Of a stretch of DNA of 64,000 nucleotides, positions 13,312 to 56,766 are shown piece by piece; the first letter of the stretch is position 1; each line of letters begins with the position of its first letter. The notes under the pieces were generated by a model. It was not told the DNA's origin. It ran no database searches and saw only the letters and a program-made list of their open reading frames with translations. The stretch covers positions 62,001 to 126,000 of the forward strand of contig NZ_CP037933.1 of NCBI RefSeq assembly GCF_004355225.1. Direction: 5' to 3'. Position numbers and translations under genes: made by a program. The DNA is from Flavobacterium nackdongense. GTDB lineage: Bacteria > Bacteroidota > Bacteroidia > Flavobacteriales > Flavobacteriaceae.

Positions 13312-14241
13312 ATGCTGAACCCAACTGCGATTAAACCCATTCAACAGGAAAGTCTCAATATCAAAAAATATGCGGCCATCGATATTGGGTCGAATGCCAT
13401 GCGTTTATTGATTACTTATATTGTCGAACAAGAAGGCAAAGAATCGCAATTCAATAAAAACTCCTTGGTTCGTGTGCCTATTCGTTTGGGACAAGATTCC
13501 TTTACGGTGGGCGAAATTTCAGAGGAAAACATCGATAGAATGATCGATGCCATGAAAGCATTTCGCCTTTTGATGAAAGTGCATAAAGTTGAAAAATACA
13601 AAGCATTGGCAACCTCGGCTATGCGTGAAGCATATAATGGACAGGAAGTTGTCGAAATTATCAAAGAAAAAGCAGGAATCGATATCGAAATTATTGATGG
13701 TAAAAAAGAGGCAATTATTATCGCATCAACGGATTTGCATCATCTTTTAAAATCAGACAAAACCTATTTGTATGTAGATGTTGGTGGAGGTAGCACCGAA
13801 TTTTCTTTGTTTTCTAATAGCAAAATTGTCGTTTCTAAATCATTCAAAGCAGGAACAGTTCGGTTTCTGAATAAAATGGTTTGTGATGTTGTTTGGCAAG
13901 AAATGGAAAAATGGATCAAAGCAAATACTCAAGAGTATGAAGATGTAATTCTAATTGGTTCAGGTGGAAATATCAATAAATTATTCAAAATGTCGGGTAA
14001 ATTGCAAGACAAACCCATGTCTTATATTTATTTGAACTCGCAATATGCCTATTTGAATTCTCTTACTTATGAGCAAAGGATCTCAGAGCTAGGTTTGAAT
14101 CCCGACCGTTCCGACGTAATTATCCCTGCAACACAAATCTATCTTAACGCGATGAAATGGAGTGGAGCTAGAAACATTTATGTGCCAAAAATTGGACTTT
14201 CCGATGGAATTGTAAAAGCAATGTATTACGGAAAGATTTAA
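13312..14241 (+). CDS. ppx: Ppx/GppA-family exopolyphosphatase
   Basis: This 309-residue protein has the ASKHA phosphatase motifs of the Ppx/GppA family: AAIDIGSNAMRLL near residue 20, ATSAMREA, the second phosphate-binding loop YVDVGGGSTEFSLF and a later LIGSGGNINKL. It corresponds to the short, N-terminal-domain form of the family. It is likely to hydrolyse polyphosphate or (p)ppGpp; the position directly after ppk1 favours polyphosphate. Its stop codon overlaps the dnaX stop on the other strand. Confidence 0.9.
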   Translation: MLNPTAIKPIQQESLNIKKYAAIDIGSNAMRLLITYIVEQEGKESQFNKNSLVRVPIRLGQDSFTVGEISEENIDRMIDAMKAFRLLMKVHKVEKYKALATSAMREAYNGQEVVEIIKEKAGIDIEIIDGKKEAIIIASTDLHHLLKSDKTYLYVDVGGGSTEFSLFSNSKIVVSKSFKAGTVRFLNKMVCDVVWQEMEKWIKANTQEYEDVILIGSGGNINKLFKMSGKLQDKPMSYIYLNSQYAYLNSLTYEQRISELGLNPDRSDVIIPATQIYLNAMKWSGARNIYVPKIGLSDGIVKAMYYGKI

Positions 14242-16009
14242 ATATCCAAATCGAAAGTCCTTTTCAATAATTCCAAATTAGGATTTATTTCATTCAATCG
14301 GTTGTATTTATCCAAAGGTGTAAAAGCAAATTTATTCTCCACTTTTTCATTAACCACAACATCAATGGTAATGTCGTGATTGTGCAATTTGCCTCGAAGA
14401 TATCCTAAAAGTTCCAGTTTTTCCGATTCAAATTCAATCTTCGTACTGTCGTTGGGCAGTTCGTGGGTTATCGTCGTGCCTTCTAATTTTGGATCACTGA
14501 TTAATAAAAGCGATTCCATAATTTTGTGTCCTTTATCGCCCAAACGTTGCGCATATTTGCTCCATTGTAGGAGCATATCGGTTTCGTTAAAAGGCTCCGT
14601 AGGAAGATGAACTTCTTCTTTTACAATTCCTTTAGTGCTTTCTAGTAATTCTCTTTTGGCTCGGATACTAGAAAGGGATAGTGCTGAAAATTTCGGTCCT
14701 TCGGTAAGGTTGCTGGTTTGCTTCACCAGTTCGTTATCGCTAGTTCGCTGTTGGGAATTTGTCGTTTCTGCTGGTACAATTACATCAGAAGGAATAACTT
14801 CAACTTTAGGTTCTGTAACTTTTGTATTCTGCAAACTGCCTTCTGCTGACTGCGTTCTGCTATCTGAAACCTGTTTAGTTTCAACAATCGAATAATCGGT
14901 TTTCCTAAAATAAGTAGGTGGAATTATATATTGCTCAACTTTTTTTTTTCTCCATCGAAGGTGATGGAGGCCAGTTGCATCAAGCAAAGTTCAACTAATA
15001 GTCGTTGGTTTTGACTCAGTTTGTATTTCAAATCGCAGTCGTTGGCAATTTCAATTCCTTTCAATAAGAAATCCTGCGACGCTTTTTGACATTGTATGCC
15101 ATATAATTTTTGGGCTTGTTCTCCCACTTCCAACAAGGATAAAGTAGAAGGCGTTTTCGAAACCAATAAATCTCTGAAATGCGAAGCCAATCCAGAAACA
15201 AAATGATGTGCATCAAATCCTTTGGAGAGAATATCGTTAAAAGCGACTAATAATTCTGGAATTTTGTTTTCCAAAATTAAATCGGTCACGTTGATGTACG
15301 TTTCATAGTCCAAAACGTTCAGATTTTCAGTAACAGCTTGTCGGGTCAAATTGCTACCACAATAGGAAACCACTCGGTCAAAAATAGACAAAGCATCACG
15401 CATCGCACCATCTGCTTTTTGGGCAATAATGTGCAAAGCATCGTCTTCATAATTCACGCCTTGGCTAAAAGCGACTTCGGCAAGATGTTCTTTGGCGTCT
15501 TTTACGGTGATTCTTTTAAAATCAAATATCTGGCAACGAGAAAGAATCGTTGGAATTATTTTGTGTTTTTCGGTCGTAGCCAAGATGAAAATGGCGTGTT
15601 TTGGTGGTTCTTCTAATGTTTTCAAGAAAGCATTAAAAGCTGCCGAAGACAACATATGCACCTCGTCAATAATATACACCTTATATTGTCCGGTTTGCGG
15701 TGGAATCCGAACTTGGTCAATCAAATTCCTAATATCATCTACTGAATTGTTCGAAGCCGCATCCAATTCGAAAACATTGAAGGCAAAATCTTCATTCGGA
15801 TCATCATAACCTGGTTGGTTGATTTTACGAGCAAGAATTCTAGCACAAGTGGTTTTTCCAACGCCACGAGGACCAGTAAACAATAGGGCAGAAGCCAAGT
15901 GATTGCTCTCTATAGCGTGTAACAAAGTACTAGTAATGGCTTTTTGTCCCACAACATCATTAAATGTTTGTGGACGGTATTTACGAGCCGACACTACAAA
16001 TTGTTCCAT
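14238..16009 (-). CDS. dnaX: DNA polymerase III subunit gamma/tau, needs a -1 shift for full length
   Basis: DnaX is the clamp-loader ATPase of the replicative polymerase. The zero frame (16009-14924) encodes the AAA+ part: Walker A GPRGVGKTT, the Walker B-type IDEVHML, ATTEKHKI and the SRCQIFDF region, and then stops after 361 aa, just past an A10 tract. The -1 frame then stays open to 14238 and supplies the tau-type C-terminal region: a variable linker followed by LLQWSKYAQRLGDKGHKIME. Joined at the A tract the product is about 590 aa, the normal size for Flavobacteriaceae DnaX. So both a short gamma-like and a long tau-like product are possible. A homopolymer sequencing error or a true mutation cannot be excluded from one sequence. 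TAnnTTTG box on the minus strand at 16034-16027, 18 nt before the ATG. Confidence 0.88.
14940..14969 (-). other. dnaX slippery A10 run with adjacent hairpin
   Basis: On the coding strand the zero-frame codons are GAA AAA AAA AAG, containing A AAA AAG, the same heptamer used by E. coli dnaX. Immediately upstream is a perfect 7-bp hairpin, CTCCATC - 6-nt loop - GATGGAG (14969-14950), ending directly against the A run (14949-14940). A -1 shift here continues into GTT GAG CAA and the tau frame; the zero frame meets TAA five codons later. Confidence 0.75.
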
Positions 16010-24258: not shown

Positions 24259-24744
24259 ATGATTCCAGAAAAACCAATGCCAGGCTTTATGTCTGCAACT
24301 TTAAAATTGACTCTATCAGGTAAAGATATTATTGCTAATGCAATGTTTCAAAAAGGGAAAGAATTTTTTGAAGCAGCAGAATTTATTAAAGGAAAACAAA
24401 GTGAAAATTCAGTTTATCTTCACTTACTTTGTCAAAGTTTTGAAATTATTATTAAATCACTATTGCTTTTTAAAGACTATGATAAATATAATCCAATTCT
24501 ACAAAAAAAAATTGGGCATAATCTTTTAAAGGCTTATGACCGTTATAAAAATGATTTGAAAATTAATGCCAATGTTAAAGAAATTCAGAGAGAATTAATT
24601 ATACTAAATTCTTTGTACAATAAACATTTCTTACGATATGGTACATCTCAAGATATTTTTTTGGATGTAAAAAGTATTAATAGCAAAAATGTATTTGAAT
24701 TAACAAAATGTTTGGTAATTAATATTTCAAAAAAATTAAAATAA
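24259..24744 (+). CDS. Hypothetical helical protein, possibly HEPN-like
   Basis: This 161-residue protein is mostly alpha-helical by composition and highly charged. The segment YLHLLCQSFEIIIKSLLL followed by KKIGHNLLKAYDRYK resembles HEPN-domain proteins, in which one helix carries a hydrophobic pair near a His; the full RX4-6H nuclease motif is not visible. It sits just after the toxin-antitoxin cargo and its flanking repeat, and before kdsB, and its AT content is higher than that of kdsB. It could be part of the same accessory DNA. Function unknown. Confidence 0.55.
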   Translation: MIPEKPMPGFMSATLKLTLSGKDIIANAMFQKGKEFFEAAEFIKGKQSENSVYLHLLCQSFEIIIKSLLLFKDYDKYNPILQKKIGHNLLKAYDRYKNDLKINANVKEIQRELIILNSLYNKHFLRYGTSQDIFLDVKSINSKNVFELTKCLVINISKKLK

Positions 24745-55990: not shown

Positions 55991-56052
55991 AAGTTATTTC
56001 ACACACAATTCAATCCTTATTTAAAATAGTACGAATCATATAACAAAAAAAA

Positions 56053-56766
56053 ATGAAAAAAATTGCAGAAAATGTATTTCAAATACCACTAATGCCGAGA
56101 AATAGTATCAATTGTTATGTAATTGACGATATCCTAATAGATTCAGGTATTAGAAGCTCGGGAAACAAAATTTTAAACGCAATTAAAAACATTGAAATAA
56201 CCAAACATGTGCTGACTCATGCTCATGCTGACCATCAAGGCAGCAGTGATTTTATTTGCAAGACTTTAAACATTCCTCTTTGGACATCTGAACTTGAAAA
56301 GGAGAATGCAGAATCAGGAAAAGTTATTTATGAATACCCGAATAGCAATGGTTTGATAGCAAAGTTTCAACAGAATTATTGGGCAGGTAAAGGCCATAAA
56401 GTATCCCAAGTACTTAAAGAGGGTGACGCTGTTGGAAGTTTCACTGTTGTTAATACTCCCGGGCATTCTAAAGGACATATTTCTTTTTTTAGAGAACGGG
56501 ATAAAGTTTTAATTGTGGGGGATGCTCTTGTAAATATGAATTTAGTGACCACTGCAGTTGGACTTAATCAACCACCAAATTTATTTACTACAGATAAAAA
56601 AATGAACATGGAATCTATAAAAAGAATAGTTGACTTAAAACCAAAAATTCTTTGTTTTGGTCACGGACCGGTTTTGTTTGATAATGGGGAATTAGAGCAA
56701 TTCGTGAGTCTAATGAACAATATACAGCAAACCATAGTCACAGAAAAGCGAACTAATTTCAAATAG
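56053..56766 (+). CDS. MBL-fold metallo-hydrolase
   Basis: This 237-residue protein has the metallo-beta-lactamase fold with HAHADH in LTHAHADHQG near residue 60, NTPGHSKGHI (His), IVGDALV (Asp) and CFGHGPVL (His), giving a full two-metal site. It lacks a signal peptide. Its C-terminal codons and stop are part of the terminator hairpin that is also found upstream of the gene. Confidence 0.9.
   Translation: MKKIAENVFQIPLMPRNSINCYVIDDILIDSGIRSSGNKILNAIKNIEITKHVLTHAHADHQGSSDFICKTLNIPLWTSELEKENAESGKVIYEYPNSNGLIAKFQQNYWAGKGHKVSQVLKEGDAVGSFTVVNTPGHSKGHISFFRERDKVLIVGDALVNMNLVTTAVGLNQPPNLFTTDKKMNMESIKRIVDLKPKILCFGHGPVLFDNGELEQFVSLMNNIQQTIVTEKRTNFK

What the first reader, a model, noticed from the sequence alone, without database searches (positions are those of the whole stretch)
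14924..14990. dnaX with reversed frameshift logic: the full-length form needs the shift
In E. coli the zero frame gives tau and a -1 shift at A AAA AAG gives gamma. Here the zero frame ends five codons after GAA AAA AAA AAG (short form) and the -1 frame gives the long form of about 590 aa. The -1 frame is open for 230 codons and carries a conserved C-terminal domain, so it is clearly selected. Either programmed shifting/RNA slippage is needed to make tau, or the A run differs by one base in the real genome.
Basis: partly seen in the sequence, partly recalled or inferred. Interest (0 to 1): 0.7.

Follow-up and report, generated by a model that had tools for sequence, protein, structure and literature searches.

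The report
Flavobacterium dnaX needing slippage for tau
A run of ten A's in the DNA-replication gene dnaX probably makes RNA polymerase slip so that one gene yields two proteins; here the long protein needs the slip, an arrangement already described in 2013, and relatives show that the frame of the long protein has changed repeatedly while the run and two nearby stop codons were kept.

Summary
On the minus strand the dnaX zero frame ends four sense codons behind a run of ten A's (361 aa, gamma-like); the conserved C-terminal part (tau, about 590 aa) is in the -1 frame. It is not a base-calling error: of 81 loci (window plus 80 nearest named loci) 76 have A10, 74 have tau in -1, and 80 have stops within six codons in both non-tau frames, against 8.8 expected by synonymous recoding. 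Such 'reversed' A10 dnaX genes were published in 2013, so the kind is known. What I add is comparative: one genome per genus in the family shows the run (9 or more A's) in 99 of 100, but tau in frame 0 in 80, -1 in 16, +1 in 3, uncalled in 1. Outside the family, loci with the run have the paired stops (69 of 95); loci without it do not (2 of 33). One genus holds all three phases. A fixed -1 ribosomal shift cannot serve the +1 genes. Best explanation: RNA polymerase slippage makes both proteins and the template frame of tau drifts. No RNA or protein data were available; ribosome sliding on the run is not excluded.

The parts
14924..16009 (-). dnaX zero-frame ORF, 361 aa: short, gamma-like product
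14940..14949 (-). A10 slippage run (T10 on the + strand)
   Evidence: conserved
14924..14926 (-). TAA stop of the zero frame, made by the Ile codon ATA followed by ATT in the tau frame
14935..14937 (-). TGA stop that closes the +1 frame directly behind the run
14238..14939 (-). -1 frame behind the run: tau-specific C-terminal part (233 codons) and its stop; the open frame itself begins at 14990

Best explanation
dnaX carries a transcriptional-slippage site. RNA polymerase slips on the A10 run and makes a mixed pool of mRNAs. mRNAs with 10 A's (or 10 plus or minus 3) are read to the zero-frame TAA and give the gamma-like protein of 361 aa. mRNAs with 11 or 8 A's bring the -1 template frame into register and give tau of about 590 aa. 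mRNAs with 9 or 12 A's end at the TGA behind the run and give another gamma-sized protein. Shown here: run, frames, both stops, their conservation, and the phase changes among relatives. Inferred: the slippage itself, its efficiency, the tau-to-gamma ratio, and the roles of the two products. Because slippage feeds all three frames, small changes beside the run can move tau to another template frame without losing either product; Flavobacterium is mostly in the -1 phase.
For: Run of 9 or more A's at this place in 99 of 100 family loci (window plus one genome from each of 99 other genera) against one other such run in 159,455 bases of the same genes. Both non-tau frames closed within six codons: 80 of 81 nearest loci (8.8 expected from synonymous recoding) and 87 of 98 family loci (18.9 expected). 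Tau in all three phases: family 80 in frame 0, 16 in -1, 3 in +1, 1 uncalled; one genus with all three phases, and +1 shared by several species in two genera. Natural control outside the family: with a run of 9 or more, paired stops in 69 of 95 and tau not in frame 0 in 33 of 95; with a shorter run or none, 2 of 33 and 2 of 33. Codon choice keeps the stops: among 71 loci with A10 and tau in -1 the first tau codon ends in T in 65 (GTT 50, GCT 15), the other six being GTA with a different stop arrangement; Ile at tau codon 5 is ATA in 58 of 70 and a further 10 loci have ATA at codon 4, while ATA is 0.15 of Ile codons. No strong RNA structure behind the run (mean MFE -5.3 kcal/mol in 81 loci; E. 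coli dnaX -19.7). Both tRNA-Lys(UUU) and tRNA-Lys(CUU) are present, as Atkins 2016 notes for Thermus, which uses slippage. Changing shift direction among orthologs is the criterion Antonov 2013 uses for transcriptional realignment.
Against: No transcript or protein data. The phase is stable in and around Flavobacterium (103 of 110 loci in -1, four changes), so it is not freely drifting there. 11 of 98 family loci and 26 of 95 loci outside the family lack one of the close stops. In two loci without a run of 7 or more, L157 and L281, tau is still in -1. A_AAA_AAG, a strong ribosomal shift site in E. coli, lies inside the run. The z-score comparison is weak, because E. coli's own stem-loop gives only -1.7 (45 nt) or 0.0 (60 nt). 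Loci are related, so counts are not independent events.
Confidence: 0.78

Rival explanations
1. Programmed -1 ribosomal frameshifting at A_AAA_AAG inside the run, as in E. coli but with the products exchanged: ribosomes that slip back make tau, the others stop and make gamma.
For: The heptamer is in the right phase here and tau is in -1 in 74 of 81 nearest loci. Two loci without a long run, L281 (A6) and L157 (A4), keep A_AAA_AAG or A_AAG right before the zero-frame stop with tau in -1, so this mechanism may work there. Atkins 2016 mentions a Chlorobium candidate with stimulatory signals.
Against: It needs one direction, but tau is in +1 in several genera, shared by species. It needs no stop in the +1 frame, yet that stop is kept. 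No strong downstream structure. The Shine-Dalgarno-like GGAG abuts the run, 3 nt from the heptamer, where E. coli has 10 nt. tRNA-Lys(CUU) is present.
Confidence: 0.08
2. Ribosome sliding on the A-run: the mRNA is uniform and ribosomes leave the run in any of three frames.
For: E. [quoted passage not shown] It predicts the same three phases and the same paired stops.
Against: The passages seen describe sliding as slow and as giving no single product, which fits poorly with a replisome subunit. Runs of 9 A's are a known transcriptional-slippage site in Thermus dnaX (passages of Baranov 2005).
Confidence: 0.11
3. Sequencing or assembly error in the A-run.
For: Homopolymers are error-prone; two A9 loci, L037 and L070, may be such errors.
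Against: Same run and frame in separate assemblies: A10 in 76 of 81 loci, tau in -1 in 74 of 81. The flanking stops are conserved at synonymous sites.
Confidence: 0.01
4. A truncated dnaX followed by a separate or decaying C-terminal ORF.
For: Databases list stand-alone C-terminal pieces, several named 'hypothetical protein' (120 of 1866 hits listed).
Against: Third-position bias in the -1 frame, and one continuous ORF across the run in the 80 of 100 family loci with tau in frame 0.
Confidence: 0.02

Closest known systems
Two-ORF dnaX genes of Antonov et al. 2013 (PMC3711429; 17 genes, 12 genera, nine with A10)
   Same: Tau needs a -1 change relative to the template; A10 at the junction; the authors suggest transcriptional realignment
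   Different: Nothing in the gene itself that I can see. The species list is in a supplement that was not available. The paired stops and the other phases are not mentioned in the parts that I read
Thermus thermophilus dnaX (transcriptional slippage on A9; seen through PMC1088944 and PMC5009743)
   Same: Long A-run, close stops in both non-tau frames, gamma and tau from one gene
   Different: There tau is in the zero frame and slipped mRNA gives gamma; here tau is in -1 and slipped mRNA gives tau
Escherichia coli dnaX (programmed -1 ribosomal frameshift; control locus L358)
   Same: One gene, two clamp-loader subunits; A_AAA_AAG present
   Different: There tau is in the zero frame, with a Shine-Dalgarno-like sequence 10 nt upstream and a stable structure downstream; here tau is in -1 and neither signal was found

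Membership tests
Two-ORF dnaX of Antonov 2013 | DnaX N- and C-parts in adjacent ORFs, joined only by a -1 change | tested here: met
Two-ORF dnaX of Antonov 2013 | poly-A run (ten A's in nine of their genes) at the junction | tested here: met
Two-ORF dnaX of Antonov 2013 | both products made in the cell | not testable with these tools
   needs RNA or protein data
Thermus-type slippage dnaX | run of nine or more A's | tested here: met
Thermus-type slippage dnaX | close stops in both non-tau frames | tested here: met
   TAA 14926..14924 and TGA 14937..14935; 80 of 81 nearest loci
Thermus-type slippage dnaX | tau encoded in the zero frame | tested here: not met
   tau in -1 here; frame 0 in 80 of 100 family loci
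Thermus-type slippage dnaX | mRNA with varied A-run length | not testable with these tools
   needs cDNA or direct RNA reads
E. coli-type ribosomal frameshift dnaX | A_AAA_AAG heptamer in phase | tested here: met
   inside the A10 run
E. coli-type ribosomal frameshift dnaX | stimulatory stem-loop downstream | tested here: not met
   window z -0.64 to -1.22; mean z 0.00 and mean MFE -5.3 in 81 loci; E. coli -19.7 but z only -1.7 or 0.0, so a weak test
E. coli-type ribosomal frameshift dnaX | Shine-Dalgarno-like sequence about 10 nt upstream of the heptamer | tested here: not met
   GGAG ends 3 nt before the heptamer; 10 nt in E. coli
E. coli-type ribosomal frameshift dnaX | shift direction conserved among orthologs (criterion of Antonov 2013) | tested here: not met
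   tau in frames 0, -1 and +1

The most novel reading that the evidence does not exclude
A slippage site in dnaX is widespread and perhaps ancestral in this bacterial phylum, and the template reading frame of tau drifts through all three phases over it. Selection keeps the run and the two stops, not the frame: a core replication gene whose genomic reading frame is close to neutral.
Probability: 0.55. Interest if true: 0.6.

Novelty: new member of a known kind. Interest (0 to 1): 0.42.

Why it matters
Reading the gene in one frame cuts off the C-terminal third of a replisome subunit; databases hold such pieces as 'hypothetical protein' or as a second 'gamma/tau'. The three phases, the paired stops and the run-less controls give a comparative argument for RNA slippage over a fixed ribosomal shift in this phylum. 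If confirmed, close relatives with the same gene in different phases would allow a direct test of whether the tau-to-gamma ratio matters.

Tried and rejected
Base-calling error: rejected by separate assemblies. Separate or dead C-terminal ORF: rejected by codon-position bias and by uninterrupted homologues. E. coli-like stimulators: not found, but the z-score test is weak because the E. coli control itself scores low. Solved structures searched with the tau C-terminal alignment: one weak hit (a DnaA chain, E 0.27), not used. A structure model of the tau C-part was made (mean pLDDT 77.1; 103 of 233 residues at 90 or more), but the fold search was not accepted, so I claim no fold. One search was given a meaningless second sequence and is not used. 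The GGA codon before the run (77 of 80 Gly codons there, usage 0.46) was considered as a Shine-Dalgarno signal and set aside for its spacing; it stays unexplained.

Sampling limits. From (398 genomes of the genus) only the 29 best new loci were analysed. Family: all 99 drawn genera analysed, genomes at least 90% complete. Dropped from run-and-phase tests: L147 (C-part cut by the contig end, uncalled) and L157 (no run). Outside the family: 134 loci analysed, 6 with tau uncalled. Not fetched: 12 phylum genomes with a dnaX hit (G558, G563, G571, G574, G576, G577, G579, G581, G589, G593, G600, G603), five reduced genomes with weak hits (G519, G527, G534, G539, G547), and genomes with only partial or paralogous hits (such as G543, G567, G592, G612, G616). 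L306 held no usable dnaX. Three family loci drawn in wider searches (L220-L222) are counted but left out. The tau frame was called by script as the frame with the longest opening behind the run (at least 60 codons). The family tree has low support and serves only for a minimum number of changes.

Full report
What is there. The minus strand carries dnaX (16009 to 14924 in the zero frame, 361 aa), ending GAA AAA AAA AAG TTG AGC AAT ATA TAA. The run is A10. One base back, the -1 frame is open for 233 codons behind the run and stops at 14240..14238. The two pieces match positions 1-370 and 400-613 of one 614-position DnaX model (PRK14971). The genome has one full dnaX. Compared with 57 relatives, differences in the -1 frame fall 3436, 2682 and 6156 on codon positions 1, 2 and 3, so this frame is translated.

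Not an error. The 80 nearest named loci (65 titles name Flavobacterium) and the window give 81: A9 in 2, A10 in 76, A11 in 3; tau in -1 in 74, frame 0 in 5, +1 in 2. The A11 loci still have tau in -1. Of the five with tau in frame 0, four are MAG loci that form one group with support 100 and have one extra base behind the run; the fifth is L052. The two +1 loci are the two A9 cases; they may be errors, and L070 is interrupted again downstream.

Two stops. Both frames other than tau are closed within six codons behind the run in 80 of 81 loci. Redrawing the tau-frame codons synonymously with the gene's own usage gives 8.8 expected; sliding along the tau part gives 0.206 per site. Codon choice shows how: among 71 loci with A10 and tau in -1, the first tau codon is GTT in 50, GCT in 15 and GTA in 6; the Ile codon that makes the zero-frame TAA is ATA in 58 of 70 at codon 5, with ATA at codon 4 in a further 10 loci, although ATA is 0.15 of Ile codons. 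A -1 ribosomal shift to tau has no use for the +1 stop.

Phases in the family. The window and one genome from each of 99 other genera: run of 9 or more in 99 of 100; tau in frame 0 in 80, -1 in 16, +1 in 3, uncalled in 1; both off-frames closed in 87 of 98 against 18.9 expected. Only one other run of 9 or more lies in 159,455 bases of the same genes.

Outside the family. Of 134 loci analysed from order, class and phylum draws, tau was called in 128. With a run of 9 or more (95): tau in frame 0 in 62, -1 in 31, +1 in 2; both off-frames closed in 69. With a shorter run or none (33): frame 0 in 31, -1 in 2; both closed in 2. Run, stops and freedom of frame go together. The Fisher values ignore relatedness. 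Twelve phylum genomes with a dnaX hit and five reduced genomes were not fetched, so these are counts of what was read, not of all that was drawn.

The +1 genes are not single errors. In genus g23, 7 of 12 loci are +1 with A10, 4 are in frame 0 and 1 is cut by the contig end with only the +1 frame open. In g31 both species are +1 with A11. Genus g101 (15 loci) has one +1, one -1 and 13 in frame 0. The two g103 loci are +1 and -1. A -1 ribosomal shift cannot make tau in the +1 genes. On a family tree of the N-part the phase needs at least 16 changes (shuffled labels 18.0; as low in 20 of 200), on a poorly supported tree where starred branches force only 2. In and around Flavobacterium it needs four changes in 110 loci, so there it is stable.

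Ribosomal signals. RNA behind the run is not unusually folded: window z -0.64 to -1.22; mean z 0.00 in 81 loci and -0.43 in 97 family loci. The E. coli control folds to -19.7 kcal/mol against a mean of -5.3, but its z is only -1.7 (45 nt) or 0.0 (60 nt), so this is a weak test. GGAG ends 3 nt before the heptamer; in E. coli AGGGAG ends 10 nt before it. Among the 46 tRNA matches in the genome, ARAGORN finds one tRNA-Lys(CUU) and two tRNA-Lys(UUU); Atkins 2016 connects two kinds of tRNA-Lys with slippage in Thermus (section 21 read). That is a hint, not a test.

Mechanism. RNA polymerase slippage on the run accounts for the run, the paired stops and the three phases. A -1 ribosomal shift fits this gene taken alone but not its family. 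Ribosome sliding on A-runs (Koutmou 2015, abstract and passages) predicts the same sequence pattern and needs an RNA experiment to exclude. Two loci without a long run, L281 (A6) and L157 (A4), still have tau in -1, with A_AAA_AAG or A_AAG directly before the zero-frame stop; there a ribosomal shift may have taken over.

What is known. Antonov et al. 2013 (passages and sections 10 and 23 read) report 17 dnaX genes from 12 genera in which recoding is needed for tau, nine with A10, and suggest transcriptional realignment; they take varied shift direction among orthologs as a mark of it, shown there for transposases. Atkins et al. 2016 (passages and section 21; [quoted passage not shown] Baranov et al. 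2005 was seen in passages. Larsen et al. 2000 is not held. So the finding is another member of a known kind. My searches for dnaX with Flavobacterium, Bacteroidetes, slippage, frameshift, tau and realignment, of the open-access library only, listed no paper whose title or shown abstract reports the three phases or the paired stops across the phylum; most of the listed papers were not opened. The name Flavobacterium comes from record titles; names of higher groups (family, phylum) are recalled, because G handles bear none.

Noticed in passing
14238-14241: dnaX (tau frame) and the convergent Ppx/GppA-like ORF on the + strand (13312-14241) overlap tail to tail by their stop codons; the ORF name is my reading of its sequence, not a database hit.
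   Followed up: no
14951-14953 and the same place in the nearest loci: The Gly codon before the run's GAA is GGA in 77 of 80 loci, while GGA is 0.46 of Gly codons in the gene. Unexplained.
   Followed up: partly
L281 and L157: Two loci without a long A-run have tau in -1 with A_AAA_AAG or A_AAG right before the zero-frame stop, like an exchanged E. coli arrangement.
   Followed up: partly
L305 and L357: In two reduced genomes (0.3 and 0.5 Mb) dnaX ends near residue 341-353 with neither a long run nor an open tau frame behind it; tau may be lost.
   Followed up: no
L037 and L070: Single loci with A9 and tau in +1 among A10 relatives; L070 is interrupted again downstream, so assembly error is likely.
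   Followed up: partly
proteins P0002-P0121: Stand-alone tau C-terminal pieces in databases, several named 'hypothetical protein', others 'DNA polymerase III subunit gamma/tau'.
   Followed up: no
24503-24511 and 56045-56053: Two further A9 runs that lie in or at the start of open frames of 100 codons or more on the + strand; not tested for slippage.
   Followed up: no
L410, L412, L413, L415 (own genome): ARAGORN reports a tRNA-like gene with a two-base anticodon 'tt' just behind tRNA-Ala of the Ile-Ala pairs; probably a chance hit.
   Followed up: no
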